This document shows, one piece after another, positions 1 to 14,151 of a DNA stretch of 64,000 nt (position 1 is the first letter of the stretch; each line of letters starts with the position of its first letter). Source of the stretch: Butyrivibrio sp. (GTDB taxonomy: Bacteria; Bacillota; Clostridia; Lachnospirales; Lachnospiraceae); assembly GCA_017535785.1 (NCBI GenBank), contig JAFXTN010000011.1, forward strand, positions 62,001 to 126,000. Direction: 5' to 3'. The translations under genes were made by a program, and so were the position numbers. The notes below the pieces were generated by a model. That model was not told the origin of the DNA and did not search any database. It worked only from the letters and a program-made list of their open reading frames with translations.

Positions 1-1
1 G

Positions 2-445
2 GCTCTGATAGCAGGACTTCTTCATGACTGTGCCAAGTGCATGTCTCATGATGATCAGATAAAGCTATGCAAAAAGAACAATATCGAGCTTTCGGATATA
101 GAGAAAAAAAACCACTCCTTACTTCATGCTAAGGTGGGAATGTATCTTGCAAGAACCAAGTATGATGTATACGATACGGAAATTCTTAATGCTATAAGAT
201 GGCATACGACAGGTAAGGAAGACATGTCTTTACTTGAAAAGATAATCTATATCGCTGATTTTATCGAACCCGGAAGAAAGCCTCTAGAAGGAATGGATAT
301 CATCAGAAAAGAAGCTTTTACGGACTTAGATAAGTGTCTTGCGCATATACTTCATGATTCCGTGATATATTTACAGACAATAGGAAAAGAGATAGATAAT
401 TCCACTATGGATGCCTATCTTTTTTATAAAAAGTATTACAAGTAA
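2..445 (+). CDS. yqeK: HD-domain nucleotide hydrolase YqeK, 5' part missing
   Basis: C-terminal 147 residues of an HD-superfamily phosphohydrolase; the reading frame is open to the left edge, so the start lies outside the window. The visible part begins ALIAGLLHDCAKCMS, where the HD metal-binding dyad is followed by a Lys as in the YqeK family. Family knowledge: YqeK proteins hydrolyse diadenosine tetraphosphate to ADP and usually sit between nadD and rsfS. Here rsfS follows 10 bases downstream on the same strand, which supports the assignment. Further conserved His and Asp residues (RWHTTG and YIADFIEPGR) are present. Nothing looks broken apart from the window edge. Confidence 0.9.
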   Translation, partial: ALIAGLLHDCAKCMSHDDQIKLCKKNNIELSDIEKKNHSLLHAKVGMYLARTKYDVYDTEILNAIRWHTTGKEDMSLLEKIIYIADFIEPGRKPLEGMDIIRKEAFTDLDKCLAHILHDSVIYLQTIGKEIDNSTMDAYLFYKKYYK

Positions 446-455
446 AGAGGTGACT

Positions 456-818
456 ATGTCAGATATTGATATTTCAAAGAAGATGGCTGCAATTGCCATT
501 GATGCTCTCGAAGACAGAAAAGGCGAAGATGTACATGCAATTGATATCAGCGAGATTTCTACAATCGCCGATTATTTCATAATTGCAAGCGGATCAAACA
601 TCAATCAGGTACAGGCTCTCGCCGATAATGTTCAGGAAATGCTTGGAAGAGCAGGACACATGACTAAGAACGTAGAGGGTTATGATACCGGAAAATGGAT
701 CCTTCTTGATTTTGGCGACATCATTGTTCATGTCTTCGATAATGAGAACCGTTTATTCTATGATCTTGAAAGAATTTGGAGAGACGGTAAGCTCATCGAT
801 AAAAATGATCTCAACTGA
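456..818 (+). CDS. rsfS: Ribosomal silencing factor RsfS
   Basis: 120 residues, the usual length of RsfS/Iojap. The motif ADYFIIASGSN near residue 32, the YDTGKWILLDFGDIIVHVF stretch and the ending FYDLERIWRDG are hallmarks of the family. RsfS binds ribosomal protein L14 on the 50S subunit and blocks subunit joining in starvation (family knowledge). The frame could start further upstream inside yqeK, but ATG at 456 is preceded by AGAGG at 446-450 and begins the conserved part, so it was chosen. It follows yqeK in an apparent operon and is closed by a hairpin at 858-890. Confidence 0.93.
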   Translation: MSDIDISKKMAAIAIDALEDRKGEDVHAIDISEISTIADYFIIASGSNINQVQALADNVQEMLGRAGHMTKNVEGYDTGKWILLDFGDIIVHVFDNENRLFYDLERIWRDGKLIDKNDLN

Positions 819-857
819 TCGAATAAAAAGAAAAAAAGAGAACATATTATAAAGAAT

Positions 858-890
858 AAGCGTACAGATAGATCAGTATCTGTACGCTTT
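858..890. terminator. Bidirectional hairpin between rsfS and lexA
   Basis: Perfect 13-bp stem, AAGCGTACAGATA (858-870) with TATCTGTACGCTT (877-889), and a 6-base loop, followed on the plus strand by TTAATT. It lies between the convergent 3' ends of rsfS and lexA and can serve both. The T-tract is short on both sides. Confidence 0.7.
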
Positions 891-929
891 AATTATGTTC
901 ATATTATCGGATAATATCTAACCATTAAC

Positions 930-1547
930 TCAATAGAAACGCATGATTCCGAACACCTTACCGAGAATAGTGCAATCATCAACTATGATAGGATCCATAG
1001 AGTCATTCTCAGGCTGAAGTCTTATATGGCCTTTCTCTTTATAAAAAGTCTTAACGGTAGCTGAATCATCAATAAGTGCAACAACCTGATCACCGTTCTT
1101 AGCTGTATTGCATACCTGAACAAAAAGCTTATCACCGCTGAAAATTCCGGCATTGATCATCGAATCGCCTTTAACATTAAGAATAAACGCATCGGCTCCC
1201 TTAGGACACATACTTGCGGGAATCGGAATATACGAATCAATATTCTCTTCAGCCAGGATAGGAGTGCCTGCAGCAACCTGACCTACGACAGGAATACTTA
1301 CGATCTCGGTCCTAACCATATTAAAGCCGTCATCACAGATCTCGATAGCACGTGGCTTAGTAGGATCACGTCTGATATATCCGTTTTTCTCAAGTGTTTC
1401 TAAGTGTGCGTGAACTGAAGATGTAGATTTAAGATTAACAGCCGCACATATATCTCTTACAGAAGGAGGAAATCCTCTGGATAATGTCTGTTCTTTGATG
1501 TAATCAAGAATCTCCTGTTGTTTACGAGAAATATTGCCTTTTTCCAT
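930..1547 (-). CDS. lexA: LexA SOS repressor / autoprotease
   Basis: 205 residues. N-terminal winged helix (about 1-70: SRKQQEILDYIKEQ, GFPPSVRDICAAVNLKS), then the Ala93-Gly94 cleavage site in VAAGTP and an S24-type protease fold with catalytic Ser129 (KGDSM) and Lys166 (SATVKTFY). In the presence of RecA filaments LexA cleaves itself and releases the SOS regulon (family knowledge). ATG at 1547 has AGGAGG at 1553-1558; a longer frame upstream has no ribosome site. It is divergent from a YneA-like gene, with LexA-type boxes between the two, so autoregulation is very likely. Confidence 0.97.
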   Translation of the reverse strand: MEKGNISRKQQEILDYIKEQTLSRGFPPSVRDICAAVNLKSTSSVHAHLETLEKNGYIRRDPTKPRAIEICDDGFNMVRTEIVSIPVVGQVAAGTPILAEENIDSYIPIPASMCPKGADAFILNVKGDSMINAGIFSGDKLFVQVCNTAKNGDQVVALIDDSATVKTFYKEKGHIRLQPENDSMDPIIVDDCTILGKVFGIMRFY

Positions 1548-1571
1548 ATAATCCTCCTTAGCGTTTTTTAC

Positions 1572-1601
1572 AGTATAACACAACATTGAATAAAAAAGCA
1601 A
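1572..1601 (-). promoter_or_regulatory. lexA promoter
   Basis: Minus strand: -35 TTGCTT (1596-1601), 18-base spacer, -10 TATACT (1572-1577) with an upstream TG at the extended -10 position. LexA-like half-sites (GTTCG) at 1608-1612 and 1621-1625 lie across and just upstream of the -35 element. Confidence 0.55.
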
Positions 1602-1612
1602 ATATTTGTTCG

Positions 1613-1624
1613 GAATATTTGTTC
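1613..1624. promoter_or_regulatory. LexA box, lexA side (one mismatch)
   Basis: GAATATTTGTTC, matching the Firmicute SOS box GAAC-N4-GTTC at 7 of 8 defined bases. It sits just upstream of the lexA -35 element and is the best candidate for autoregulation. Confidence 0.55.
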
Positions 1625-1632
1625 GATTTTTA

Positions 1633-1661
1633 TTGACAAACGAAAATATGTTCGGTATATT
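1633..1661 (+). promoter_or_regulatory. Promoter of the YneA-like gene with a LexA box in its spacer
   Basis: TTGACA (1633-1638), exactly 17 bases, TATATT (1656-1661). The spacer holds CGAAAATATGTTCG (1641-1654), a near-match to the CGAAC-N4-GTTCG SOS box, so a bound LexA dimer would cover the promoter core. Confidence 0.75.
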
Positions 1662-1667
1662 ATTTCT

Positions 1668-1681
1668 AGAACAGTTGTTCG
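1668..1681. promoter_or_regulatory. Consensus LexA box
   Basis: AGAACAGTTGTTCG contains a perfect GAAC-N4-GTTC (1669-1680) just downstream of the YneA-like gene's -10, about where transcription should begin. A weaker palindrome, AAACATATGTTT, follows at 1682-1693. Confidence 0.75.
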
Positions 1682-1712
1682 AAACATATGTTTGTATATT
1701 GTGAGGTGCGAT

Positions 1713-2132
1713 ATGAGTGAAGCGATGGCAATAGCAGCAAGTTTGTACAATAATCCAAGATATTACAGTGAGAGCGAGATACGCAGACGTAATAACAAGA
1801 TCAGAAGACAGCAGATAGTAAGAAGACAGTATATCACCATTTCTGCATTGGCTTTCATTGCAATGTTCCTTATTATGTTCAACATCTTTTCATTTAAGGT
1901 TTCTGCGCAGTCGGATTCATTTGTACCGGAATATAAATACTATAAGTCCGTGATGATCCATTCAGGTGATTCTTTGTGGTCGATTGCAAACAGCGAATTT
2001 AACGCCGAACATTATAAGGATTTGAATGCATATATTTCAGAAATTTGTATGATAAATTCAATTGACAGCGATTCAATTTTGCACGCAGGGGAATCCATCG
2101 TAATCCCTTATTATTCAAGGGATTATAAATAA
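1713..2132 (+). CDS. LysM membrane protein, probable SOS division inhibitor (YneA-like)
   Basis: 139 residues. Arg-rich cytoplasmic N-terminus (about 24-39), one membrane helix (about 42-66, ALAFIAMFLIMFNIFSF), then an extracytoplasmic C-terminal LysM domain (IHSGDSLWSIANSEF ... LHAGESIVIP). This N-in, LysM-out layout, divergence from lexA and LexA boxes at the promoter match YneA-type proteins, which delay septation during SOS (family knowledge; function here is inferred from context). ATG 1713 follows GTGAGG at 1701-1706. Sequence alone does not prove division inhibition. Confidence 0.85.
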   Translation: MSEAMAIAASLYNNPRYYSESEIRRRNNKIRRQQIVRRQYITISALAFIAMFLIMFNIFSFKVSAQSDSFVPEYKYYKSVMIHSGDSLWSIANSEFNAEHYKDLNAYISEICMINSIDSDSILHAGESIVIPYYSRDYK

Positions 2133-2187
2133 ATTCTTAATTCTCTTAATTATCGCTAAAACGTGTTTTTATGCGTTTAATTTGCGC

Positions 2188-2193
2188 TATAAT
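2188..2193 (+). promoter_or_regulatory. Candidate -10 box for the chemoreceptor gene
   Basis: Perfect TATAAT 47 bases before the chosen GTG start. No good -35 hexamer is visible upstream; I looked for the sigma-28 motility pattern and did not find a convincing one. Confidence 0.4.
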
Positions 2194-2239
2194 TATTTCA
2201 AGACATTGTATTTTCTTTATGGCGAAAGGGGTGCTTGAG

Positions 2240-4030
2240 GTGAAAAAAAATAGCGCAAAATTTAAAACAGAAGGTCTTAAGTTCTACAAACGAATAGGTT
2301 TTCAGAATCTAGCAGTTAATATCGTCATGCTTGCGATGTTCATAATTGCAATTTTCACTATGGACAGTAATATAAAGAACGTTATCCATATTGCAAACAG
2401 CGCAAGTATCGGAGAAATTGAGCTTTTAAGTAAAGAAGCCGAACTCCGTGAAGGAATTATAACAATAGACGGTAATATATCTGCATTGTTAGGTGCCGTA
2501 TCTATGGGTACCAATGATCCGGCTAACTACGAAGTATATTTCACTAACATTGATGCCGTTAGGGTTAAGATCGATCCCTTATTACAGTTCATGGAAGAAA
2601 GTATATTTGTGAGTGAGGCAGCTAACGGACCCGAACAAATGGCGGAAGTAAGAAGGTCCACGGAAGAATTCCGAGCTGTAGTTGATGAGATGATCGTAGC
2701 TCTCAGAGCCGCAGATGCTGCTACATCTATGGATATATATATCAATAAATACATAGATGCTCAGGCAGCTACATATGCAGCTTATGATGCAGCAGAGGTA
2801 ACAATCCAGGAATTGGCTTCTCAGCTTGAAATATATCTGAATATGCTTTATAAGCAGGCTTTCACCAAGACAATAGTTCTTGTTGTAATGTTTGTTATCA
2901 TCATTATTATCAGCGTTATTCTCAGTGAAACAAGGATCAGTAAGAAGATCACAAGCATCGTTGGTGAACTTCAGAAGATCATTAAAGGAATCAATGATAA
3001 TGAAGGTGATCTTACAGCAAGAGTTAAGACCAAGACAAGTACAGAGCTTGGATTTATCGTTGGTGGTATCAATAACTTCATTGAAACTCTTCAGGGAGTT
3101 ATCAAAGAGGTTAAGGACGGATCTAATGTCCTTACATCTTCATCTGATTCAATGACACTTAAGATTGAAAAGGCTAGCGATAATATCACCAATACATCAG
3201 CCGCTCTTGAAGAACTGTCTGCTAGTATGGATACAGTTTCAACTACAGCTGATCAGATTTCCGGAAAGCTTGATGAAGTTAAGACTGCTACCGATGAGAT
3301 CAGACAGGAAGCTGCCAACGGTGCCGAGACAGCCGAGAACATCAAGCGCGAAGCTGATGATATTAAGAGCGAAGCTCTTAAAAAGAAAGATAATACCGGA
3401 CTTAAAGTTGAGGAACTCAGTGCAGTTCTTGAGAAATCCGTTAAAGATAGCGAGAAGGTTGCACAGATCAATGAGCTTACCAAGGTTATCCTTGATATTG
3501 CATCACAGACCAACCTCCTTGCACTTAATGCTTCTATTGAGGCTGCAAGAGCAGGAGAAGCAGGTAAGGGATTCGCGGTAGTTGCTGAAGAGATCAGTGC
3601 TCTTGCTGAGAACAGTAGACAGACAGCCGGTAATATCCAGGTTATCAGTAATGAAGTTACTGAAGCTGTTAATTCACTTTCAACCAATGCCATGGACGTT
3701 ATCGAATTTATCAACAACGATGTACTCAATGATTACGATACATTCGTTGAAACCAGTGATAAATATGAAAATACGGCTGTTGTTATGGATGACATCTTAG
3801 AGAAATTCAATTTGAAAGCCGATAACCTCAACAATATCATGGATAAGATGGCAGAATCTGTTGTATCCATCACTGATTCCGTTAAAGAAAGTACTCAGGC
3901 TATCAACCTTTCAGCTGCGAACTCTTCTGAGATCGTTGGACAGATCCAGGGTATCAGTGAAGCAATGGGCGAAAACAACAAGGTTACCGAGCAGCTTAGC
4001 GACAGTACCAAGAAATTCACCAACTTATAA
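2240..4030 (+). CDS. Methyl-accepting chemotaxis protein
   Basis: 596 residues. First membrane helix about 20-42, extracytoplasmic helical sensor domain about 45-205, second helix about 210-230 ([17 protein letters not shown]), HAMP about 232-290, then a long coiled-coil signalling domain. The hairpin tip contains [20 protein letters not shown], the highly conserved CheA/CheW contact region. It reports ligand binding to the CheA kinase. GTG 2240 is chosen because AAAGGGG (2225-2231) precedes it at suitable spacing; an in-frame ATG at 2219 has no ribosome site. The ligand is unknown. It stands alone between terminators, so it is probably one of several receptors in a motile organism. Confidence 0.93.
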
Positions 4031-4100
4031 TTTTTGCAACCCTTTAACAGCCAATTTCTTATAGAATTTTTGTTATATATTTTTGTGGTTTATTAATATT

Positions 4101-4148
4101 GAATACAACGGGCAATAGATGATACTATTGTACCGTTGTATTCTTTTT
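4101..4148 (+). terminator. Rho-independent terminator after the chemoreceptor
   Basis: GAATACAACGG (4101-4111) pairs perfectly with CCGTTGTATTC (4133-4143), with an inner CAATAG/CTATTG stem, and is followed by TTTTT. It ends just before the next gene's ribosome site, which rules out starts inside the hairpin for that gene. Confidence 0.85.
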
Positions 4149-4166
4149 AATTGGGTGGAGATCATA

Positions 4167-5285
4167 TTGGGTAATTATAGAAAAGCACATTACAGAAAAC
4201 GAAACGGAGATAGACTGTCCGCTTCTGAATATAAAGCACGTAGGCAAAAAGAGATCATATTTCATTTTGCATTACTTATCTTAGTTTTAGCATTATGCAT
4301 AGTAGGATTGGTTTTCTTAATAAAAAAAGTAACTCATAAAAAAGAGGAAATCGTTCCTCCGGATAATTCAACAGAGCAACTTACGGTTATAGATACTATT
4401 ATAGACAATGAAGAAAAGGTCAAAGAAGAGAGTCCTTTTTTAAAGAAATCTGAGGATGCATCATCTTTTTTTGACGGTTATGACATAGCTATAAGCGATG
4501 ATACAGATTATATCGCAAGTGAAAATACGATAAGCACATACGCGCTCTTACTTGATCTTGATAATGGCAAAGTAGTTGCTTCCAAAGACGGAAACGTACG
4601 CATTAATCCTGCATCAATGACCAAGATTCTTACGCTTTTGGTCGCTGTGGAACATATTGATAATCTTGATGATACCTTTGTAATGACACAGGAAATAGGT
4701 AATTATGTTTATAGTAATGATTGTAGCTGCGTAGGACTTAAAGTTGGAGACACACTTACGATCAAAGACCTTCTTTACGGGACGATCCTTCCTTCAGGTG
4801 CTGATGCTTCCATGTGTCTTGCCGAATATGTTGCCGGTTCTCAGGAAGAATTCGTTAAGCTTATGAATGAAAAGCTTGAAGAACTTGGACTTTCAGACAC
4901 AGCTCATTTCACTAATTGCATCGGAATATATGATGAAGATCATTATTGCACACTTATGGACATGGCTATGATCCTTAAGGCAGCTGAAGAGAATGAACTT
5001 TGCCATGAGATACTTAACGCCAGAACATACGTTACATCACCTACATCTGAGCATCCTGAAGGTATCACGATATCCAACTGGTTTTTGCGCAGGATAGAAG
5101 ATAAGGATACTCACGGACAAGTAGCCGGCGCTAAGACAGGATTTGTAAATCAGTCAGGTTGTTGCGGAGCAAGCTATCAGGTATCTAATGACGGAAATCA
5201 TTATATCTGTGTTACCGCAGATTCATACAGTCCATGGAGATGTATCTACGACCATGTAGACATTTATTCGAATTATACAAGCTAA
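4167..5285 (+). CDS. Membrane-anchored D-alanyl-D-alanine carboxypeptidase
   Basis: 372 residues. Basic N-terminus, one membrane helix (about 31-52), linker, then an S11 peptidase domain with SxxK in ASMTKI, LPSGADAS at the SxN position and KTG in GAKTGF. Such enzymes trim the terminal D-Ala from peptidoglycan pentapeptides (family knowledge). The second motif reads S-G-A rather than the usual S-x-N. TTG 4167 is preferred: GGTGGAG (4154-4160) is well spaced, and upstream starts lie in the preceding terminator. The anchor is N-terminal, unlike the usual C-terminal amphipathic helix of PBP5 types. A second S11 enzyme is at 12801-13772; the two are not close copies. Confidence 0.88.
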   Translation: MGNYRKAHYRKRNGDRLSASEYKARRQKEIIFHFALLILVLALCIVGLVFLIKKVTHKKEEIVPPDNSTEQLTVIDTIIDNEEKVKEESPFLKKSEDASSFFDGYDIAISDDTDYIASENTISTYALLLDLDNGKVVASKDGNVRINPASMTKILTLLVAVEHIDNLDDTFVMTQEIGNYVYSNDCSCVGLKVGDTLTIKDLLYGTILPSGADASMCLAEYVAGSQEEFVKLMNEKLEELGLSDTAHFTNCIGIYDEDHYCTLMDMAMILKAAEENELCHEILNARTYVTSPTSEHPEGITISNWFLRRIEDKDTHGQVAGAKTGFVNQSGCCGASYQVSNDGNHYICVTADSYSPWRCIYDHVDIYSNYTS

Positions 5286-5289
5286 ATTA

Positions 5290-5335
5290 AAAGGATCATG
5301 GTATCTGATCATATTCAGATATTCCGTGATCCTTT
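5290..5335. terminator. Bidirectional terminator
   Basis: AAAGGATCATGG (5290-5301) pairs with CCGTGATCCTTT (5324-5335), with an inner TATCTGA/TCAGATA stem. It lies between the convergent carboxypeptidase and recombinase genes. Confidence 0.75.
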
Positions 5336-5349
5336 ATATATCTTTGTAT

Positions 5350-6366
5350 TTATCTAAGTCCCTGTAAAAGAGATCTTGAATCCTTCATAGCAGTGTCAGA
5401 CGCTTTAGCATAGATATTCGTCGTCTGAATGCTCTTATGATTCATCTTTTTCTTAAGTAATAATATGTTATTGTCACTTGCCGCATAAAAGCTCATCGCA
5501 AAGCTGGATCTAAGCTTATGAGGCGATATGATCCTTGATTTTTCTGGAAGACACACAGAAACATACTTTTTAACTAAGATCTCTACAGCCCTTACTCCGA
5601 GCCTATTACCGGTAGTAGTGGTAAATGCAGGGAATTTAAGAGAAGAGGAGCTAAGGTTATATTTAGCCTTTTGAGAAGAGAAGTAGATATCAAGATAATC
5701 CCTGCATTCGTCTGAGTAATAGATCACTTGAGTATCCCCACCTTTTCTTGTTACAACAACACTGCAGTCCTCAAGATTATAATCGATAATATCTGTATCA
5801 AGCATCTCAGATACACGAAGTCCGGTGTCCAGAAGCAATATGAACATCGCAGAATCTCTGTCAGCATAAATATAGTGAACTTTAGCTACGGAATCATGAA
5901 GATGAGTTCCATGGCGAACAGTATCAAGCAAAATTCTCTGTTCATCGTTTGTTAAATAAATAACATCCTTTTCAGGGATTTTAATTGTCTTAGTAGCAGC
6001 GATCGGATTTCTCGATAATTTGCCTGTAGCTACGAAAAAGCCATACATACTTGAAAGCGAAGCACGTTTTCTTTTAACAGTGGTTTCTTTATGATTACCG
6101 GCAAGCGTTGTAAGGAATCTATTGATATCAAGAACCTCAATTTCGCCAAGATCTTTAATAGTGATTTCTTCGATGGATTTATCGCTGTATTTTGGAAGGA
6201 AATTCACGATGAATTCCAGGTACGTTTTAATGTCACGACAATATTCGAGTTTAGTCGCATAATTTTCAACGCGTCCGAAGTTATATATGAAGTCTGATAC
6301 GAAATCAGGCATCTGAGCAAGAAGCTCGTTGATCTTATCCGAATAATTCATCTTAGTAGCAGGCAT
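5350..6366 (-). CDS. Tyrosine recombinase, XerS-like
   Basis: 338 residues. N-terminal SAM-like DNA-binding domain (about 15-120), then a phage-integrase catalytic domain with the complete set Arg184 (TGLRVSE), Lys208 (TRKGG), His283 and Arg286 (HKLRSS), His310 (MNHKS) and nucleophile Tyr319 (TNIYA). The N-terminus (LLAQMPDFVSDFI ... LEYCRDIKTYLEF) resembles, from memory, streptococcal XerS (LMPWYV ..., LYEYLKEYDRFF), more than XerC/XerD. ATG 6366 follows GGGGG at 6375-6379. An 11-6-11 palindrome about 90 bases upstream (6457-6484) looks like its target. Predicted role is chromosome dimer resolution. No phage genes are nearby, which argues against a prophage integrase. Confidence 0.85.
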   Translation of the reverse strand: MPATKMNYSDKINELLAQMPDFVSDFIYNFGRVENYATKLEYCRDIKTYLEFIVNFLPKYSDKSIEEITIKDLGEIEVLDINRFLTTLAGNHKETTVKRKRASLSSMYGFFVATGKLSRNPIAATKTIKIPEKDVIYLTNDEQRILLDTVRHGTHLHDSVAKVHYIYADRDSAMFILLLDTGLRVSEMLDTDIIDYNLEDCSVVVTRKGGDTQVIYYSDECRDYLDIYFSSQKAKYNLSSSSLKFPAFTTTTGNRLGVRAVEILVKKYVSVCLPEKSRIISPHKLRSSFAMSFYAASDNNILLLKKKMNHKSIQTTNIYAKASDTAMKDSRSLLQGLR

Positions 6367-6456
6367 ATGAATGACCCCCAAAAACTTAGCATTTTATGGA
6401 CTAAAAAGCCTTAATCCGTACATATTGGCTATAGTTGTATTATATCACATATTAGC

Positions 6457-6484
6457 TTTTCGTAAAACTAGAATTTTGCGAAAA
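6457..6484. other. dif-like recombination site (candidate)
   Basis: Left arm TTTTCGTAAAA, 6-base centre CTAGAA, right arm TTTTGCGAAAA. The 11-bp arms are inverted repeats with one mismatch, giving the 11-6-11 geometry of Xer dif sites. It lies in the non-coding gap upstream of the recombinase, as difSL does next to xerS, and resembles difSL as I remember it. No T-tract follows, so it is not a terminator. Confidence 0.65.
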
Positions 6485-6497
6485 AGTATGTCTACTC

Positions 6498-6551
6498 AAA
6501 AAAGGCATTTCTCTCATATGATCCATATTACATATAAGCCAAATGCCTTTT
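6498..6551 (-). terminator. Terminator after the cytidylate-kinase-like gene
   Basis: AAAAGGCATTT (6500-6510) pairs with AAATGCCTTTT (6541-6551) across a 30-base loop. Read on the minus strand it ends in a run of six T. It also separates this gene from the dif-like site. Confidence 0.65.
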
Positions 6552-6587
6552 AAAACATATTATCAAGCAAATGCTGCAACTAATGCA

Positions 6588-7229
6588 TCATGCTTTATTG
6601 CTTCTGATCTGTTCGAAATCTTCAACGTACTGAATGATGAATTTAACAGTACCTTCAATGCCAAGCTTACTTGAGTTGATGCAGAGGTCGTAGCTGTCAG
6701 CTCTTCCCCATTTTTTGGAAGAATAGTAATTATAGTAGCTCTGACGCTGCTTATCCTTCTTATTCATCATATCTCTGGCTTTATCATCGGATTTTACGTC
6801 CTCAAAACGTTCTTTTATCCTCCTGATCTTAGCCTCTTCATCACCGTAGATAAAGAGATTAAGCACATTATCGAATTCACTGAGTGCGTAATCAGCACAT
6901 CTTCCGACGATCACGCAAGGTCCTTCCGATGCGATCTTCTTGATGGTATCAAACTGTGCGAGAAATACCTTATGGCTGATAGGCATATCTACAAAGCTTG
7001 AAGAATTATAACCGAATGAATATGTGTCCATTACCAGATTATATAAAAAAGAGTTTGTAGGTCGCTCGTCATGATTCTGGATCATCTCCTCGCAAAAACC
7101 GCTCTCTTTTGCTGCTCTTGAAAGAAGTTCCTTGTCATAACACTTAATACCAAAGTGGTCAGCTACCATCTCTCCTATTTCTCTTCCGCCTGAACCAAAC
7201 TGTCTTCCGATAGTGATAATAGTATTCAT
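6588..7229 (-). CDS. Cytidylate kinase-like family protein
   Basis: 213 residues, similar to the cytidylate-kinase-like family (PF13189 type). The start TIITIGRQFGSGGREIGEMV is this family's P-loop-like signature (GRQFGSGGR), followed by CYDKELL and GRCADYAL. A role in nucleoside monophosphate or related phosphorylation is inferred from family membership; the substrate is not established, and the true CMP kinase gene is usually separate. ATG 7229 has AAGGGG at 7238-7243, eight bases away. It is close to rluD but has its own terminator downstream. Confidence 0.8.
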   Translation of the reverse strand: MNTIITIGRQFGSGGREIGEMVADHFGIKCYDKELLSRAAKESGFCEEMIQNHDERPTNSFLYNLVMDTYSFGYNSSSFVDMPISHKVFLAQFDTIKKIASEGPCVIVGRCADYALSEFDNVLNLFIYGDEEAKIRRIKERFEDVKSDDKARDMMNKKDKQRQSYYNYYSSKKWGRADSYDLCINSSKLGIEGTVKFIIQYVEDFEQIRSNKA

Positions 7230-7285
7230 ATTTCTCACCCCTTCTTCAACATGATTTCATGCCTTCTCTGTAATTTTATTTTACA

Positions 7286-8215
7286 TTATTTGAGAACATC
7301 AAGCAAATGGCTAAAATACTCGGGTAACGGTGCATCGGTTTCAATATATTCACCTGTTGTGGGATGTTTGAACCCAAGAATCTTGGCGTGCAAGCACTGG
7401 CCTTGCGTTTTAAACTTGCTCTTCCTGGAAGGCGCATAAACTTCGTCTCCCAAAAGAGGATGCCCGATATGGGCCATATGCACCCTAATTTGGTGTGTAC
7501 GACCTGTTTTGAGCTTACATTCGATATAAGTATAATTATCGCCTTCAAAGCGCTTTAAAACGCGATAATGGGTTGATGCTGTCTTACCACCCGATTGAAC
7601 AACCGCCATCTTCTTTCTGTCATTTGCACTTCTTCCGATGAGCGTCTCGATATCACCCTCATCTTCTTTGATTATTCCATAAACAATAGCATGATATATG
7701 CGGTTTACGGAATGCTCTTTAAGCTGATCTGCTATCTTTTGATGAGCATTGTCATTCTTACAGATGATCACAGATCCGGTTGTGTCCTTATCGATCCTAT
7801 GAACAATTCCGGGTCTCATAACGCCGTTTATACCGGACAAATTGTTCTTACAATGAAACATAACAGCGTTAACAAGCGTATCTGAATAATGTCCTGCAGC
7901 CGGATGTACGACCATACCCTTTGGCTTATTTACAACGAGCACATCATCATCTTCATACAAGATATCAAGCGGAATATCCTGAGGCAGAATATCAGGAACC
8001 TCTACCGGTGGTATCTCCATAACAATGTGATCACCCTCATTTACAACATAACTGGCTTTAACGTTTTTGGAATTACATAAAACCTTCTTGTCATCAATAA
8101 GCTTTTTTATATAAGTACGCGAAAAGGAGTCAATAAGCTCACTGATAAGCTTATCGACTCTCATACCTTCATATTCATCGGTTACAACATACTCAAAGCA
8201 ATTGTTTTCTTCCAT
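7286..8215 (-). CDS. rluD: RluD/RluA-family 23S rRNA pseudouridine synthase
   Basis: 309 residues. N-terminal S4 RNA-binding domain (about 10-75, MRVDKLISELIDSFSRTYIKKLI) followed by the RluA catalytic domain with HRIDKDTTG (catalytic Asp), LKTGRTHQIRVHMAHIGHP and HAKILGFKHP. It isomerises uridines in rRNA; in the RluD subfamily these are in helix 69 of 23S rRNA, but exact target positions cannot be read from sequence. Its ATG overlaps the lspA stop codon by one base (TAATG), indicating translational coupling, a common lspA-rluD arrangement in Firmicutes. Confidence 0.93.
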   Translation of the reverse strand: MEENNCFEYVVTDEYEGMRVDKLISELIDSFSRTYIKKLIDDKKVLCNSKNVKASYVVNEGDHIVMEIPPVEVPDILPQDIPLDILYEDDDVLVVNKPKGMVVHPAAGHYSDTLVNAVMFHCKNNLSGINGVMRPGIVHRIDKDTTGSVIICKNDNAHQKIADQLKEHSVNRIYHAIVYGIIKEDEGDIETLIGRSANDRKKMAVVQSGGKTASTHYRVLKRFEGDNYTYIECKLKTGRTHQIRVHMAHIGHPLLGDEVYAPSRKSKFKTQGQCLHAKILGFKHPTTGEYIETDAPLPEYFSHLLDVLK

Positions 8216-8757
8216 TATTTGAATTCCTTAAACTTCTTTTGCTGTCTGAAGCTCAAAAAGCTGAAGTCATTTTCCTTGTAATAGAACAAGATCAATATTG
8301 CAAAAAGAAATGTCGCAACAGTAACATAAATGTCTGCCACATTGAAAATCGGGAAATTAATAAGCACAAAATAGAAAAAGTCCACAACATAATCATATCT
8401 GACTCTGTCTATCATGTTTCCTGCGGCGCCGCTCGCTATAAGCACAAGCAAAATGTGCATGATATTATACTTCTTATCATCAGGCATTCTGAAAAGCACA
8501 TATGAAATGATTATAAGGATCATGATAGCGATCAGTATAAAGAAAACCTTCTGATTCTGAAGCACGCCGAAAGCAGCTCCGCTGTTTTTCAAATAATTAA
8601 GCTCAAATACACCGTCAATTATCTTAAACGGAGGCTTATCCTGAAGACGCTCAACCGCAAGATACTTGGTGAACTGATCCAAAAATACAAATAATAATAT
8701 CAAAAGATAATCAACTAAAAGAAATATCTTTTTCTTCTTGGACATTTTATTGTTCAT
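8215..8757 (-). CDS. lspA: Lipoprotein signal peptidase II
   Basis: 180 residues with four membrane segments. Conserved blocks: DQFTKYL, NSGAAFG, GAAGNMIDRVRYDYVVDFFYF and FNVADIYV; the last two carry the catalytic aspartates. It cleaves signal peptides from diacylglyceryl-prolipoproteins in the cytoplasmic membrane. It lies between aroB and rluD. The C-terminus has a basic 20-residue tail (FRQQKKFKEFK). A plausible substrate in this window is the lipobox-bearing carboxypeptidase at 12801-13772. Confidence 0.95.
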   Translation of the reverse strand: MNNKMSKKKKIFLLVDYLLILLFVFLDQFTKYLAVERLQDKPPFKIIDGVFELNYLKNSGAAFGVLQNQKVFFILIAIMILIIISYVLFRMPDDKKYNIMHILLVLIASGAAGNMIDRVRYDYVVDFFYFVLINFPIFNVADIYVTVATFLFAILILFYYKENDFSFLSFRQQKKFKEFK

Positions 8758-8771
8758 ACTTATAACCTCTT

Positions 8772-9875
8772 TTAATCGTTAGTTTCAACATAAAGGATCT
8801 CATTAAGAGCAGCCTTCATTTCATCGTCGGTAACTGTCGTATCGATCACAGCTTTACCGAGCTTCCTAAGAAGAATAAATCTGATCTTATCGGAATCAGC
8901 TTTCTTATCTGACTTAGTAAGCTCAATTACCTCATCAACGTCAATATCTTCTACTGAGATAGGAAGCCCGAAAGGAACAAACATATCTCTGATCTCATAA
9001 TACTCTTCCATAGAGATCATTTCTTTTTTCCAAGAGATAAATGCTGCGGCAACGGCTCCTAGAGCAACACATTCACCGTGCATAAGCTCAAAATTCTTAG
9101 CCTTTTCAATGGCGTGGCCAAGTGTATGACCATAATTCAAAAGAGCTCTCTCACCTTTTTCGGTAGGATCCTTCTCTACTACTCTTCTCTTTATATCACA
9201 GCTGTGATATACCATCTCAATAAGGACATCAAGATCTCTTTCGCAGATCTCATACATATTGTCAATCAGCCATGTATAGAACTCAGCATCCTTGATAAGT
9301 CCGTGTTTCATAACTTCGGCAAAACCTGATATATACTGGCGGTCATCAAGACTCTTAAGAGTTGAAAGATTCATATAAACGAGCTTAGGCATATGGAAAG
9401 CACCAACCATATTCTTGTAGCCCTTAAAATCAACACCTGTCTTTCCTCCGATACTGCTGTCAGTCTGAGCAAGAAGCGTTGTTGGAACCTGGACAAAAGA
9501 GATTCCTCTGAGATATGTAGCTGCTGTATATCCGGCCATATCTCCTACTACTCCGCCGCCAAGAGCGATAATAAGATCATGTCTGTCAAACTTATTCTTT
9601 ATGAGCTCCTCGTATATCTTCTCAATCTCGGAAAGATTCTTATTGCTCTCTCCCGCAGGTATAACACATTTAATAGTTTTAGATGAAACAGGTGATATGA
9701 GATTCATGATTTCATCTGAATAAAGCTTATCGACATTGGAATCCGTAATGATAGCAAATTTACGATTTTCAAATCCTATGTCCTTTAATGCTTTCGGAAG
9801 CCCTTCAAAGCTACGATCAAATAATATGTCATAGCATGGCTTCTCCTGAAAATTGACTGTAAGAGACTTCTCCAT
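8772..9875 (-). CDS. aroB: 3-dehydroquinate synthase
   Basis: 367 residues, full length. NAD-binding glycine loop (ALGGGVVGDMAGYTAATY), the QVPTTLLAQTDSSIGGKTGVD block, and zinc ligands in AEVMKHGL, YGHTLGHAIE and MHGECVALG. It converts DAHP to 3-dehydroquinate, the second step of the shikimate pathway. An AAGGAGT ribosome site precedes the ATG. No other shikimate gene is adjacent; it sits just upstream of lspA on the same strand, 14 bases apart, so the two probably share a transcript. Confidence 0.96.
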   Translation of the reverse strand: MEKSLTVNFQEKPCYDILFDRSFEGLPKALKDIGFENRKFAIITDSNVDKLYSDEIMNLISPVSSKTIKCVIPAGESNKNLSEIEKIYEELIKNKFDRHDLIIALGGGVVGDMAGYTAATYLRGISFVQVPTTLLAQTDSSIGGKTGVDFKGYKNMVGAFHMPKLVYMNLSTLKSLDDRQYISGFAEVMKHGLIKDAEFYTWLIDNMYEICERDLDVLIEMVYHSCDIKRRVVEKDPTEKGERALLNYGHTLGHAIEKAKNFELMHGECVALGAVAAAFISWKKEMISMEEYYEIRDMFVPFGLPISVEDIDVDEVIELTKSDKKADSDKIRFILLRKLGKAVIDTTVTDDEMKAALNEILYVETND

Positions 9876-9901
9876 GATGTCTTACTCCTTTATACAATAT
9901 A

Positions 9902-9938
9902 GAAAAAAGCTGTTGACTGAAAATCATCCGTCAACAGC
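9902..9938 (-). terminator. Terminator after sepF
   Basis: Minus-strand hairpin GCTGTTGAC/GTCAACAGC (9930-9938 with 9909-9917) followed by six T. It separates sepF from aroB. Confidence 0.8.
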
Positions 9939-9950
9939 CTTATCTTTTCA

Positions 9951-10475
9951 TTAGTCAATCTGCTGTGGTCCTTCTGAAATACCGCCGCCGAAACCACTTA
10001 AGAGATTCTGGAAATCTCCTGAGATATCAACGGATGCGGGTGTGATAATAAAGATATATCTTGAAATCTTCTGAAGATTTCCTGAAATAGCAAATGTTGA
10101 ACCCGAAGTGAAATCAATGATCCTCTGAGCGATGTCTACATCAAGCCCCTCGAGATTAAGCACTACGGTACGGTTTGCTAAAAGAGTCTCTGTAATCTCT
10201 CTGGCATCTTCAACAGTTGTAGGTTTGATAACGCAAACCTCCATTCCTGCGCCTGAAAGAGCTTTTCTCTTTGAAGGAACGACCTTGGGAGCAGGCTTTC
10301 TAACCTTCTCTTCGGAAATTTCGATGCTAGGATCGTCCTTGCCTATCGGAGCTGAATTACTTAGTGATTCAATTTTAGAACCGCCATCATAATAGCCGTC
10401 ATCGGAATCGTAATATCCGCTTTCATCATCCCCAGTAAGCTGAATTGCTTTTAAAAACTTGTCCATTACGTTCAT
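9951..10475 (-). CDS. sepF: Cell division protein SepF
   Basis: 174 residues. N-terminal amphipathic membrane-binding helix (MDKFLKAIQL), acidic linker rich in Asp/Tyr/Gly, then the SepF core (about 79-165: VCVIKPTTVEDAREITETLL, VVLNLEGLD, AQRIIDFTSGSTFAISG). SepF tethers FtsZ filaments to the membrane and organises septum assembly. It follows the HlyD-like gene, a neighbourhood I recall from other Lachnospiraceae, although the usual yggS between them is not here. Confidence 0.93.
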   Translation of the reverse strand: MNVMDKFLKAIQLTGDDESGYYDSDDGYYDGGSKIESLSNSAPIGKDDPSIEISEEKVRKPAPKVVPSKRKALSGAGMEVCVIKPTTVEDAREITETLLANRTVVLNLEGLDVDIAQRIIDFTSGSTFAISGNLQKISRYIFIITPASVDISGDFQNLLSGFGGGISEGPQQID

Positions 10476-10553
10476 AATATCAAACTCCTAACTTATTATT
10501 CCCAACAAAATCCCATATAATATTAACGTAGTTTTACATAAACTGTCAAATTT

Positions 10554-12221
10554 TTATTCCGTCTTTTTAGTAGAATCTTCAGCATTTGAAGCATCGCTTC
10601 CCGCTTTTGATGCTTCAGATGAAGCCTTAGAAGCCTTGGACGCCTCGGAAGATGCTTCTGAAGACGCTTCTGAAGCCTCAGAAGAACTGCTTGAAGCCTC
10701 AGAACTCTCTGTATCTGCGTTATCCGAATCATCTGTATCTTCCGATGTGCTTTCTACATTGGAAGCATCATTTGAAGGAACATTATCAGATGAATCCGAA
10801 TCGCTGCTCTTGCCCGTCTTACCGCTATTATCAACGGTTGCTGAATCAAGAACAATATAATCATATGCATTCAGACCATACATTGTATTCGATCTGACTA
10901 TCGAGTACTCGTCATTCTGATACAAGATCTTGATCTGTCTGAAATCCGCGTATCCCTTATTGATATTATATACTCCAATTAGGGTATCTGTCTTGCTTAT
11001 TGTAAATCTATCATTGGAATCCGGCTTAATAAGTATATCTCCGGCTCTCAGAATATCTGTATCAATATAATAATCCGTCTCTGTCTCGTTATAGATAGAC
11101 AGATTCAATAATTCTGTTGTCTCATTTCCCTGCTCATCGTACTTATCCTTAAGTACTCCGAAAGTTCCGTCATTACCCTTGATGATATAATCCTTGGGTA
11201 CAATGAAAAAGCTCTTGTTAACGATAGAAGAATTCGGTATCTTAAGTCCCTTTTCGTCCTCAGTGATAAGCTCGATATTTAGATATCTGTCTCTGCAGAA
11301 CGTGATCATTGAATTAGTGAAAGTCAAGATCACGAAATTATCGCCGTCCGAATTGGAATATGTTGAAACCTTACCGTAAGACTCATCCTGATTCTTGATG
11401 AAACGAACCTTGATATATTCGCCGTTTTGCGCTTTCTCATTCATAAGCGCAAACTTTTCGTCATTCTTCTCATGAACGATGACTGACCATTCTTCACTGG
11501 TACAAAGCTTATATACAGGATCGCCTGCTTTGACGAGCGTATTATTGATCAGCTGTTTCTTTTCATACTTGGTCTGGTCAAAATTATCAAGAGTGATAGT
11601 GTTTATATCAAAATTCTCATATCCATCGATAGAATAGACAACTATTCCCGTATTCTGCGCACTCTTATAATTTATACTCTTGAGTGAACCGTTTCCTGCA
11701 TTGAGAGATTGGATATTATCCAAAATACTGCCGTTTGCAAGCTTTTGAACGGTACCGTCCAAGCTTATCTTAAAATCATATACTGTATGAAAATCGCGAA
11801 CATCGAAAGAAGAATCAAAATTAACGATCTGAGATCTGAGCTCTGCCATATCCTCATCACTGAGTGATACATCTTCGGATCCTTGTGATTTAAGATATTC
11901 AAGGAGCTGTCCGGATTCATCAAGCGTATATACGAGATTACCTACCGCTACTCTGCTACCCTCTGTCTGGAAATAATTGACATATCCGGCCGCATCGGAG
12001 TCAACCTCTTCCTCTTTTCTGATAACCAATGCCTCATAAATGTTGTTACTCGACAAAGAGCCTTCATTTACCTGATATCCGACAATATGGTCTTTACGCA
12101 TGTAGGTAATGACACTGATAACGATATATAAAGCCATTACGGCAAAGAATATCATACCAATGTTGATATTATTCAGATTTTTGGGATACCTAGTAATCTT
12201 TCGGCTACCGTTATCAGCCAT
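10554..12221 (-). CDS. HlyD-like membrane-fusion protein with low-complexity tail
   Basis: 555 residues. Short basic N-terminus, one membrane helix (about 19-41), then an extracytoplasmic region with HlyD/biotinyl-lipoyl-like features (AAGYVNYFQTEGSRVAVGNLV and a second half around residue 210). The last 90 or so residues are Ser/Asp/Glu/Ala-rich, ending in SEA/SEAS-type repeats. Proteins of this kind are annotated as HlyD-family adaptors in Lachnospiraceae, but no ABC transporter or permease is nearby, and position next to sepF suggests an envelope or division role (inference). ATG 12221 has AAAGG nine bases upstream; a longer TTG start lacks a ribosome site. Confidence 0.75.
   Translation of the reverse strand: MADNGSRKITRYPKNLNNINIGMIFFAVMALYIVISVITYMRKDHIVGYQVNEGSLSSNNIYEALVIRKEEEVDSDAAGYVNYFQTEGSRVAVGNLVYTLDESGQLLEYLKSQGSEDVSLSDEDMAELRSQIVNFDSSFDVRDFHTVYDFKISLDGTVQKLANGSILDNIQSLNAGNGSLKSINYKSAQNTGIVVYSIDGYENFDINTITLDNFDQTKYEKKQLINNTLVKAGDPVYKLCTSEEWSVIVHEKNDEKFALMNEKAQNGEYIKVRFIKNQDESYGKVSTYSNSDGDNFVILTFTNSMITFCRDRYLNIELITEDEKGLKIPNSSIVNKSFFIVPKDYIIKGNDGTFGVLKDKYDEQGNETTELLNLSIYNETETDYYIDTDILRAGDILIKPDSNDRFTISKTDTLIGVYNINKGYADFRQIKILYQNDEYSIVRSNTMYGLNAYDYIVLDSATVDNSGKTGKSSDSDSSDNVPSNDASNVESTSEDTDDSDNADTESSEASSSSSEASEASSEASSEASKASKASSEASKAGSDASNAEDSTKKTE
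10575..10720. repeat. Degenerate SEA-coding microrepeat
   Basis: Imperfect tandem GAAGC(T/C)TC-type units in frame inside the HlyD-like gene, encoding alternating Ser, Glu, Ala and Lys. This kind of sequence is prone to length change by slippage. Confidence 0.7.
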
Positions 12222-12262
12222 CTTGCACAACCTTTACGAATTGATTCATTATAAAACAAATG

Positions 12263-12293
12263 TATAAGCCGCGGGGTTTTTCCGCGGCTTATA
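12263..12293. terminator. GC-rich hairpin
   Basis: TATAAGCCGCGG pairs perfectly with CCGCGGCTTATA around a short GGTTTTT loop. It lies between the P-loop gene and the HlyD-like gene. The T-tract is weak on the minus strand, so it could be an attenuator rather than a full stop. Confidence 0.6.
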
Positions 12294-12308
12294 TACTAAA
12301 ACTTTTGA

Positions 12309-12728
12309 TTAAAGTGATATAACTACTTTAGATTTGACACCTTCCGGAAGCTCAGACTCATCCATAGAGAGGCTGAGAACAAAATCAATATTAAACTTCT
12401 CGCTAAGAGATTCAAGCTTATCGATAGTGCTGCTGATATCCTGTCCTTCAAGACAAGAAATTTTAAGGAAGCTGTCAAAATACATTTGCTGGAGATCGTG
12501 GTCCTGAGATATGATACCACTTACGAAGCCAATAAATTCATCACAATTAGAAATCATAAATTCCGGTACTACAATGAGGCGAATCTTGTTATTAAGCTCA
12601 TACATGTGCTTGGTGTTCTTATCAAGAAAGGCTATTGAGCCGAGAACATTCTTAACCTCGGTATTAACCTTGTCCAATAAGCATTTGGTCTTTCCTTTAC
12701 CCTTTTTCCCAACAATTAACTGAACCAT
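12309..12728 (-). CDS. Small P-loop protein of unknown function
   Basis: 139 residues. N-terminal Walker A-like loop GKKGKGKT right after the first beta strand (VQLIVGKKGKGKT), then a probable Walker B-like strand (IRLIVVPEF). It is too short for a complete motor ATPase. From memory, homologues in Lachnospiraceae carry the loose label twitching motility protein PilT, which the sequence does not support beyond the P-loop. ATG 12728 follows AGGAGGG at seven bases; two upstream in-frame starts lie before or within that site. It sits between the lipoprotein carboxypeptidase and the HlyD-like gene on the same strand. Confidence 0.65.
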   Translation of the reverse strand: MVQLIVGKKGKGKTKCLLDKVNTEVKNVLGSIAFLDKNTKHMYELNNKIRLIVVPEFMISNCDEFIGFVSGIISQDHDLQQMYFDSFLKISCLEGQDISSTIDKLESLSEKFNIDFVLSLSMDESELPEGVKSKVVISL

Positions 12729-12800
12729 CGGCATACCCTCCTGCAAGTAAGAATTTTATAGATGAATTAATTATAAATTATTACCCGTTAAAAGACAACC

Positions 12801-13772
12801 TCAACCTACGATTTCTTCAAGCAATCTGGACATGTCGGTATAAAGCACTCCGGCGTCTTCATCCCGCATGATCACTGCGATGTAAGGGTCACCGTTTGTA
12901 TCTCTTGCAAGTAAGATAAGACAATGACCGGCCGCATTGGTCGTGCCTGTTTTTCCACCGATAACGGTAACTCCGGGAGGGGCAGATTTGGCACCTGACA
13001 GGAAGCCGTTGGTGTTAGTCTTGGATATTTCCACGGTTCCGCCCTTAGCGTCCTGGTAAGTGGTTGAATATTCGGTCATATTGATGATCTCGCTGAATGT
13101 ATCATACTGCATTGCTGCACTAAACATAAGATACATATCATAAGCTGTCACATAGTGTTCATCTGAAGTAAGTCCGTGTGGATTTTCAAAATGAGAATTG
13201 GTCGCTCCAATATTTACAGCTTCTTCGTTCATAAGAGTAATAAAGTCCTCTCCCTGAGGTCCGGTGATATTTGAAGCTATAAGATTGGCCACATCATTGG
13301 CTGAATAGATCAATAATAGATGAAGAGCCTGATCCAGAGTCATTTTGTCACCCTCTTTGAGGTTGACCTTCTGAGCTCCGCTCTCATTTACATAAACATC
13401 GGATTTAGCTGTTAGAACCTGATCGAGTGAACCGTACTTGAGCGCAACATAAGCGGTCATGACCTTGGTTAGACTGGCAGGCATGACCCTTAAATTTATA
13501 TTCTTGGAATATATAGTTTCTTTTCTTGTTAAGTCGAACAAACCTGCGCTTGCCTTCTCATAAATCTCAAGATCAGAGTCCTCGGGCTTCTTATCTTCAT
13601 CCGCAACGCAAAGATCGGAAGCAAAGGTTGGATAAAAAAGATCGTCCTTTTTATCTGATGCTGATTCATCCATTGAATATTTGGCTGAATAGCCGGCACC
13701 TTTACAACCTGTCAATAAAAGCAGCGCAAATGCAAGTACCAGACAAAACGTACGCTTACTTGTACATCTCAC
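12801..13772 (-). CDS. D-alanyl-D-alanine carboxypeptidase lipoprotein
   Basis: 323 residues. Signal peptide with lipobox LLTGC (about residues 18-22), then an S11 domain with SxxK (PASLTKVM), SxN (YSANDVANL) and KTG ([13 protein letters not shown]). All three motifs are intact. It should be anchored to the outer face of the membrane and trim peptidoglycan stem peptides. Its start overlaps the end of mgsA, so the two are coupled; GTG 13772 gives a classic basic n-region, while TTG 13781 sits too close to the AGAGGAG ribosome site. It lies next to the rod-shape cluster, which suits its function. Confidence 0.9.
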
Positions 13773-14151
13773 GCCACTCAAGATCTCCTCTGTCCAAAGA
13801 TTTGATTAAAAGCTCCGCAGAAGCTAGATTGGTCGCAACCGGGATATTATGCATATCACATAATGTCATTACGTTGTTGATATCAGGCTCATGAGATTTA
13901 ACCGTAAGAGCATCCCTAAGAAAAATAACAAGGTCGATCTCATTATGCTCTATAGCTGCACCAAGCTGCTGTGCACCACCTAAGTGCCCTGCAAGATATT
14001 TGTGTATACTTAAATTAGTAACCTCTTCAATAAGTCTGCCTGTTGTGCCTGTGGCATACAGATCATTCTTACTAAGGATTCCTCTGTAAGCAATGCAAAA
14101 ATTCTGCATCAGTTTTTTCTTAGCGTCATGCGCTATAAGTGCTATATTCAT
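13756..14151 (-). CDS. mgsA: Methylglyoxal synthase
   Basis: 131 residues, typical length. [13 protein letters not shown] (phosphate and Asp region), [16 protein letters not shown] and [15 protein letters not shown] are the signatures of MgsA. It converts dihydroxyacetone phosphate to methylglyoxal, a bypass that relieves sugar-phosphate stress. The position directly after rodA is common in Clostridia. The ribosome site is GGGAG before the ATG. Confidence 0.96.

What the first reader, a model, noticed from the sequence alone, without database searches (positions are those of the whole stretch)
5350..6484. XerS-like recombinase with an adjacent 11-6-11 dif-like site
The recombinase keeps all catalytic residues and its N-terminus looks like streptococcal XerS. 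About 90 bases upstream lies TTTTCGTAAAA, then CTAGAA, then TTTTGCGAAAA: 11-bp inverted arms (one mismatch) around 6 bases, the exact layout of Xer target sites, and similar to difSL as I recall it. XerS/difSL is known from streptococci and lactococci as a one-enzyme chromosome resolution system with the site next to its gene. Finding the same layout here suggests this lineage also uses a single recombinase.
Basis: partly seen in the sequence, partly recalled or inferred. Interest (0 to 1): 0.75.

Follow-up and report, generated by a model that had tools for sequence, protein, structure and literature searches.

The report
One-enzyme chromosome-dimer resolver in Butyrivibrio
This gut bacterium appears to separate joined chromosomes with a single cutting-and-joining enzyme acting on a short mirror-image DNA site beside its own gene at the replication end-point, an arrangement that most of its family seems to share but that I found described only for other bacteria.

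Summary
A tyrosine recombinase (5350-6366, minus strand, catalytic residues intact) has a 28-bp 11-6-11 inverted repeat at 6457-6484, 90 bp upstream, unique in its genome. The host is a Butyrivibrio. The GC-skew maximum of the 274-kb contig lies 771 bp from the site. The recombinase occurs in 275 of 299 family genomes. The site is one form of a family motif found in 219 of 299; where gene and site share a contig in genomes outside the training set, it lies upstream in 26 of 26, and roughly opposite dnaA in 11 of 12. Three Zot-bearing phage-like elements sit at such sites. No Bacillus-type dif in 15 genomes; no XerC over cut-off in 20; XerD of this genus has lost R-I, H-II and H/W-III. By NCBIfam it is not XerS (154.6 against 267 bits) but a separate, XerS-like clade; its motif also picks one streptococcal-type difSL. 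Best reading: a single-recombinase Xer/dif module. Recombination itself is untested.

The parts
5350..6366 (-). XerS-like tyrosine recombinase gene, 338 aa from ATG (a TTG at 6381 is possible)
   Evidence: NCBIfam best hit XerS 154.6 bits (cut-off 267); PF00589; catalytic residues; AlphaFold model mean pLDDT 87.8; nearest solved folds XerA and XerH
6457..6484 (+). dif-like recombination site, 11-6-11 core
   Evidence: identical in G207 and in Butyrivibrio sp. X503 and LB2008
6454..6487 (-). full 34-bp motif (14-6-14) as defined on family sites, read in the gene's direction
   Evidence: PWM; model R1 hit C25:68456-68485 covers model positions 3-32
6439..6466 (-). promoter-like TTTACG-16-TATAAT for the recombinase; its -35 lies inside the site's gene-proximal arm
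   Evidence: 1 found, 1.4 expected in shuffles: weak alone; the same TTTACG-16-TATAAT can be read in L232, and a TAGACA-type hexamer right after the site in several family members
6500..6551 (-). terminator-like inverted repeat (AAAAGGCATTT...AAATGCCTTTT) between the cytidylate-kinase-like gene and the site
   Evidence: read directly
411..1601 (.). rsfS (411-818, plus strand) and a lexA-like gene (930-1601, minus strand): flanking genes also seen near xerS in other family members (synteny anchor)
   Evidence: (RsfS by Pfam); lexA named by eye
6588..9875 (-). cytidylate-kinase-like, rluD-like, lspA-like and aroB-like genes on the other side; same order in congener G207 (where the xerS-site module lies in the opposite orientation to them) and, for rluD-lspA-aroB, in G153
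   Evidence: rluD, lspA and aroB named by eye

Best explanation
A single-recombinase Xer/dif module at the replication terminus. Proposed working: the XerS-like protein binds the two inverted arms of the site as a dimer; at cell division two sites in a dimeric chromosome are synapsed with help of the FtsK/SpoIIIE-type translocase; Y319 and the R-K-H-R-H residues cut and rejoin the strands around the 6-bp centre in two steps, giving monomers. As the gene's -35-like hexamer lies inside one arm, the bound enzyme probably also represses its own gene. Shown here: anatomy, uniqueness, conservation with paired changes in the two arms, terminus position, linkage across the family, and prophage-like elements joined at such sites. 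Inferred: binding, cleavage positions, synapsis, translocase dependence, autorepression, dimer resolution itself.
For: Unique site beside an intact recombinase. Skew maximum within 771 bp (own), about 1.2 kb (G120) and 1.4 kb (G191) of the site. dnaA-to-site distance 0.455-0.500 of the contig in 11 of 12 genomes. Arms co-vary: 79.5% of cells paired, 8 pairs with both-side changes, covariation score reached by 0 of 500 shuffles. Motif in 219 of 299 genomes (training genomes included); upstream in 26 of 26 same-contig genomes outside the training set; 51 of 80 loci have it, all 51 upstream. Zot-bearing elements at the site in G033, G149 and G111, with no integrase recognised in the element proteins scanned. 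FtsK gamma domain in 7 of 7 genomes. No XerC over cut-off in 20 genomes. Same place as the main XerS-like gene of G153, near lexA and rsfS. The motif also finds one difSL.
Against: No recombination was measured. 80 of 299 genomes have no model hit, and 39 of 90 loci no site in the stretch searched, some cut by contig ends. Two Butyrivibrio relatives (L234, 80%, and L236, 58% identical) show no motif within 1.5 kb. In G265 the best site and the presumed gene are 57 kb apart. G178's site lies at 0.336 from dnaA. Of 28 genomes, 9 have two or more places at E<=0.01 (8 of them picked for high counts) and 3 none. A XerD homologue exists in 162 of 299 genomes, and most of the 30 rows examined keep R-I, H-II, R-II and H-III, so a two-enzyme role elsewhere in the family is not excluded. 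The own assembly is 90.8% complete.
Confidence: 0.88

Rival explanations
1. The recombinase is an integrase of a mobile element and the palindrome is its attachment site or remnant; it has no housekeeping role.
For: Tyrosine recombinases are mostly integrases (general knowledge); a second own-clade copy (L009, G153:C26) lies in another neighbourhood, in a stretch with toxin-antitoxin-like ORFs by eye.
Against: A relative is present in 275 of 299 family genomes, near lexA/rsfS in those loci inspected, at the skew maximum; no phage or ICE gene was recognised by eye among the ORFs of window 1-14,000 or in the four neighbours scanned.
Confidence: 0.04
2. The palindrome is only an operator or a transcription terminator hairpin of the recombinase gene.
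For: The promoter-like -35 overlaps one arm and the window has five other 11-6-11 palindromes.
Against: In many genomes the site lies 0.7-11.5 kb from the gene; it stays near the terminus; Zot-bearing elements are joined at it; a separate terminator-like repeat lies at 6500-6551.
Confidence: 0.04
3. A two-enzyme system: the XerS-like protein works together with the XerD homologue at this site.
For: XerD homologues in 162 of 299 genomes; class-A sites have unlike arms.
Against: 137 of 299 lack a XerD hit at E<=1e-35; in the two genomes of this genus XerD has lost R-I, H-II and H/W-III; 0 of 30 XerD rows show the GKG motif of the catalytic lysine (motif recalled); the site here is symmetric.
Confidence: 0.05

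Closest known systems
XerS/difSL of streptococci and lactococci (PMC5357621, passages seen; XerS-proper proteins)
   Same: One recombinase of about 340-360 aa; site just upstream of the gene and at the terminus (terminus recalled); similar arms; the Lachnospiraceae motif picks difSL as best hit of one streptococcal-type xerS locus.
   Different: Protein below the XerS cut-off and in a separate clade; 24-29% identical to the six XerS-proper proteins tried. Site symmetric with 6 bp between arms, against difSL's unequal half-sites and 11-bp centre.
XerH/difH of Campylobacter and Helicobacter (PMC5357621, passages seen; structures 5jjv, 5jk0)
   Same: Single recombinase with a site near its gene; similar size; fold match.
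   Different: Lower sequence score (63.6 bits against 118.2 for XerD in the profile search); other phylum.
XerL/dif of Legionellales (PMC9765430, passages seen)
   Same: Lineage-specific single recombinase, long inverted arms, terminus site, used by a mobile element.
   Different: There dif and xerL are more than 400 kb apart in L. pneumophila; no sequence comparison with XerL was made here.
XerCD/dif of E. coli and B. subtilis
   Same: 11-6-11 layout, terminus site, FtsK gamma present.
   Different: No XerC over cut-off, no Bacillus-type dif found, one intact enzyme.
CTXphi-type phages that integrate at dif (PMC5357621, passages seen)
   Same: Zot-bearing small elements sit at the site.
   Different: Host system is of the single-recombinase kind.

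Membership tests
XerS (NCBIfam NF003462) | Score over the curated cut-off of 267 bits | tested here: not met
   154.6 bits, though XerS is the best family hit; all 36 members of A2 hit it; none of the 5 genomes of this family is over the cut-off (8 of 398 are, all outside the family)
XerS (NCBIfam NF003462) | Falls inside the XerS clade | tested here: not met
   six XerS-proper rows form one clade (99/96); own plus Lachnospiraceae-type rows a separate clade (99/94); their sister relation is weak (86/35)
XerS/difSL | Single site directly upstream of the gene | tested here: met
XerS/difSL | 31-bp site with unequal half-sites and 11-bp centre | tested here: not met
   symmetric arms and 6 bp between them here against the description
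Single-recombinase Xer/dif (general kind) | Intact catalytic R-K-H-R-H-Y | tested here: met
Single-recombinase Xer/dif (general kind) | Site at the terminus | tested here: met
   exception G178
Single-recombinase Xer/dif (general kind) | No second catalytically intact Xer partner | tested here: inconclusive
   own genome and congener: only a XerD without R-I, H-II, H/W-III besides integrase-type hits; but the own assembly is 90.8% complete and other family members have a XerD that keeps R-I and H-II
Single-recombinase Xer/dif (general kind) | Recombination at the site by this enzyme alone, under FtsK control | not testable with these tools
   only FtsK gamma presence was seen
XerCD/dif | XerC and XerD over cut-off plus classical dif | tested here: not met
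   XerC 0 of 20 (the cut-off is strict, 2 of 14 control genomes pass); own XerD 266.6 bits against 329.6; dif 0 of 15 (pattern recalled)
XerH/difH | Best match to XerH | tested here: not met
   XerH is 8th of 13 in the profile search

The most novel reading that the evidence does not exclude
Lachnospiraceae have handed chromosome-dimer resolution wholly to a XerS-like enzyme with its own dif, while their XerD is becoming a non-recombining DNA-binding protein: 0 of 30 XerD rows keep the GKG motif, and in Butyrivibrio it has also lost R-I, H-II and H/W-III, yet the gene is kept. It would be a natural case of a recombinase turned architectural factor, for example in SMC unloading as reported for B. 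subtilis XerD (recalled).
Probability: 0.3. Interest if true: 0.75.

Novelty: new variant of a known kind. Interest (0 to 1): 0.62.

Why it matters
It names the likely dif site and its recombinase for a dominant gut and rumen family, a further single-recombinase branch next to XerS, XerH and XerL. It offers a target for markerless engineering by site excision in Butyrivibrio and relatives, explains where some small filamentous-phage-like elements sit in this family, and makes it testable how a two-enzyme system is replaced by one, as a degenerating XerD is still present.

Tried and rejected
Palindrome as evidence on its own: rejected, as the window has six such repeats.

Classical Bacillus dif in 15 genomes: none; the pattern is recalled and rigid, so a diverged dif could be missed.

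Full membership in XerS: rejected on score and tree.

The own-clade protein as an acquired replacement of the family gene: considered because of its long branch, but the gene order matches the family's locus, so fast vertical divergence and in-place replacement cannot be told apart. L009 in G153 is a second copy elsewhere.

G222's two sites (315117 and 339707) as ends of a mobile element: not supported; the stretch between holds xerS and ordinary-looking genes (by eye), and the centres differ.

G087, G197 and G196 Zot elements: no site above score 12 on the fetched stretches. So 3 of the 6 best Zot hits lie at the site; the cut at six (E<=1.5e-5) was made after seeing the list of 28 hits in 27 genomes, and the weaker hits were not followed.

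difSL link: of eight XerS-proper loci only one (L354) has a motif hit; the other seven score 8.1 or less.

Structure: pTM 0.65, so only the fold class is used.

Paper searches for a prior report: XerS+difSL; XerS+Lachnospiraceae; XerS+Clostridia+dif site; inovirus+dif site+Clostridi; chromosome dimer resolution+Lachnospiraceae; a six-term search with gut genera; cryptic inoviruses+dif+integrase+Xer; XerD-like+XerS+Streptococcus+SMC; tyrosine recombinase XerS+Lachnospir; Xer recombinase+Lachnospir+dif. No title or abstract start in the listings describes this system; I looked inside three papers only, by passages (PMC5357621, PMC3025954, PMC9765430). Subscription journals are mostly not held; the founding XerS paper was not held.

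Full report
What was checked. The window is C25:62001-126000 of a 2.9-Mb, 39-contig assembly. The site occurs once, with up to 3 mismatches, in window and genome. The best named relative of the protein is that of Butyrivibrio sp. X503, 97% identical; B. sp. LB2008 85%, B. proteoclasticus P6B7 80%.

The palindrome alone proves little: six 11-6-11 repeats with at most one mismatch lie in the window, against a mean of 0.77 in 60 shuffles. So the argument rests on comparison.

Comparison. The protein has a relative (E<=1e-20) in 275 of 299 sampled family genomes, 238 of 246 good ones. The family is Lachnospiraceae, judging from most record titles. I took 90 xerS-like loci of 89 genomes (30, 60). 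A 34-bp weight matrix, seeded with ten sites seen by eye, settled on 51 of 90. The 39 distinct sites align without gaps: AAA-N6-TTT is invariant, with arms near CTATTCGnn / nnCGAATAG around it. The Butyrivibrio site is the TTTTCG form; G120 has TATGCG/CGCATA arms and G135 GTTGCG/TGCAAC, so the two arms tend to change together. Counted on the alignment, 79.5% of cells pair, against 72.6% in shuffles; 8 pairs show changes on both sides; 0 of 500 shuffles reach the covariation score. These rows are related, so the shuffle figure is not a probability.

Independence. The model R1 hits 219 of 299 genomes at E<=0.01, training genomes included. I therefore took the 30 genomes outside the 90 loci whose gene is in the cut-off listing and whose site is in that or: in 26 site and gene share a contig, and in all 26 the site is upstream of the gene, 60 bp to 11.5 kb away, median about 1.0 kb; the other 4 are on different contigs. 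Against this, in G265 (gene known only from the XerC-model table) they are 57 kb apart. Of the 80 loci, 51 score above the 99% level of mononucleotide shuffles, 51 upstream, 0 downstream or inside, with up to 1.5 kb of flank on each side; hosts include Christensenella and Alkalibacter, so the pair reaches beyond the family. Some of these 80 are probably the same species as training genomes. The 28-bp core is identical in own, G207, L232 and L233.

Copy number. In the 28 genomes, 16 have one place at E<=0.01, 9 have two or more (8 of these were chosen because one search gave them 3-4 matches) and 3 have none. A palindrome is often listed on both strands of one place.

Terminus. Cumulative GC skew over the whole 274-kb contig peaks at 67,686; the site is at 68,457. 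In G120, whose site has different arms, the peak is at 328,409 and the site at 327,194 (400-kb stretch); in G191 the peak within 1.50-1.58 Mb is at 1,537,338 and the site at 1,535,936, with the skew changing sign there among 20 sampled windows. Fifteen genomes were given to the dnaA search. Three were dropped: G104 and G072 (dnaA and site on different contigs) and G062 (no site). Of the other 12, 11 have the site 0.455-0.500 of the contig length from dnaA; G178 has 0.336, with its dnaA hit in two places.

Partners. In the own genome PF00589 gave three hits: this gene, XerD on C4, and an 88-aa fragment at a contig end. XerD has K for R-I, Y for H-II and F for H/W-III; in G207 K, F and Y. Among the 30 XerD rows read (the best 30 matches to the own XerD, out of 162 genomes with a hit), the other 28 keep R-I and H/W-III, and 27 keep H-II. 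None of the 30 shows GKG before ER-x-I/V-P, where E. coli XerD has its catalytic lysine (motif recalled). XerC over cut-off: 0 of 20 genomes, but only 2 of 14 control genomes pass, so the cut-off is strict. FtsK gamma: 7 of 7.

Elements at the site. G033 has two sites 7.6 kb apart sharing centre and right arm, with a Zot-type protein between. G149 has a site at 2,872,600 and a partial second one at 2,878,366 repeating the centre, right arm and flank; between them lie Zot and Rep_trans proteins. G111 has sites at 45,433 and 35,003 sharing one arm, but not the centre, around Zot, a Viral_Rep protein and a weak coat-protein match. Of the six best Zot hits these three lie at the site. No integrase appeared among the element proteins scanned (not every ORF was scanned). 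The natural reading is integration by the host enzyme, as for CTXphi.

Descent. In a tree of 95 rows the own protein, G207, G120, G135 and a second G153 copy form a long-branched group (the program warns of long branches). With XerS proper added (six of the eight genomes over cut-off), own plus Lachnospiraceae, Christensenella and Alkalibacter proteins form one clade (99/94), XerS another (99/96), joined weakly (86/35, 42 rows, bootstrap not fully settled). Gene order (rsfS, lexA, LysM, then rluD, lspA, aroB, sepF; mostly named by eye) is shared with G153's main locus. In congener G207 the xerS-site module lies the other way round relative to the neighbouring genes. The matrix made from Lachnospiraceae sites picks the difSL element (ATCTTTCCGAAAAACTATAATTTTCTTGAAAA) as best hit of the G587 xerS locus: 15.9, above all 400 shuffles (maximum 15.1), 1 of 1000 for the upstream stretch; the other seven XerS-proper loci score 8.1 or less. 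That suggests, without proving, common origin with difSL. That G587 is a streptococcus is inferred from these sequences.

Fold. The model (mean pLDDT 87.8, pTM 0.65, so domain placement is uncertain) matches XerA and XerH best.

Regulation. The promoter-like -35 sits in the gene-proximal arm (1 found, 1.4 expected), and in other members a TAGACA-type hexamer follows the site directly. Autorepression is therefore plausible, not shown.

Verdict. A single-recombinase Xer/dif module, new in detail, known in kind. I found no print on it in the ten searches listed under Tried and rejected; these cover open-licence papers only.

Noticed in passing
L200:7700-15335 (G033:C14:95700-103331): 7.6-kb element with a Zot-type protein, bounded by two copies of the dif-like site sharing centre and right arm.
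   Followed up: partly
L226:6600-12450 (G149:C1:2872600-2878420) and L225:1000-11470 (G111:C32:35003-45466): Two more Zot-bearing small elements at the dif-like site, with Rep_trans and Viral_Rep type replication proteins.
   Followed up: partly
L226, about 12235-12270 (G149:C1:2878234): A third site-like palindrome inside the right end of the G149 element, with 7 instead of 6 bases between the arms.
   Followed up: no
L001:1462-2358 and L036 (XerD of G000 and G207): XerD homologues that have lost R-I, H-II and H/W-III but are kept; the 30 family XerD rows read lack the GKG motif.
   Followed up: partly
L201:11775-12863 (G153:C26): A second XerS-like gene of the Butyrivibrio clade, away from the main locus, in a 19-kb stretch that also holds nucleotidyltransferase and antitoxin-like ORFs (named by eye).
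   Followed up: no
L198/L199 (G222:C1:315117 and 339707): Two near-perfect sites with different centres flank xerS and about 22 kb; unlike centres may stop recombination between them.
   Followed up: partly
L203 and L204 (G143:C13 and C136): One genome with two XerS-like genes, each with its own, differing site nearby.
   Followed up: no
L209:254-1579 (G207:C16): A transposase-like ORF (IS30-like by eye) lies directly beside the site in the congener, where the xerS-site module is inverted relative to its neighbours.
   Followed up: no
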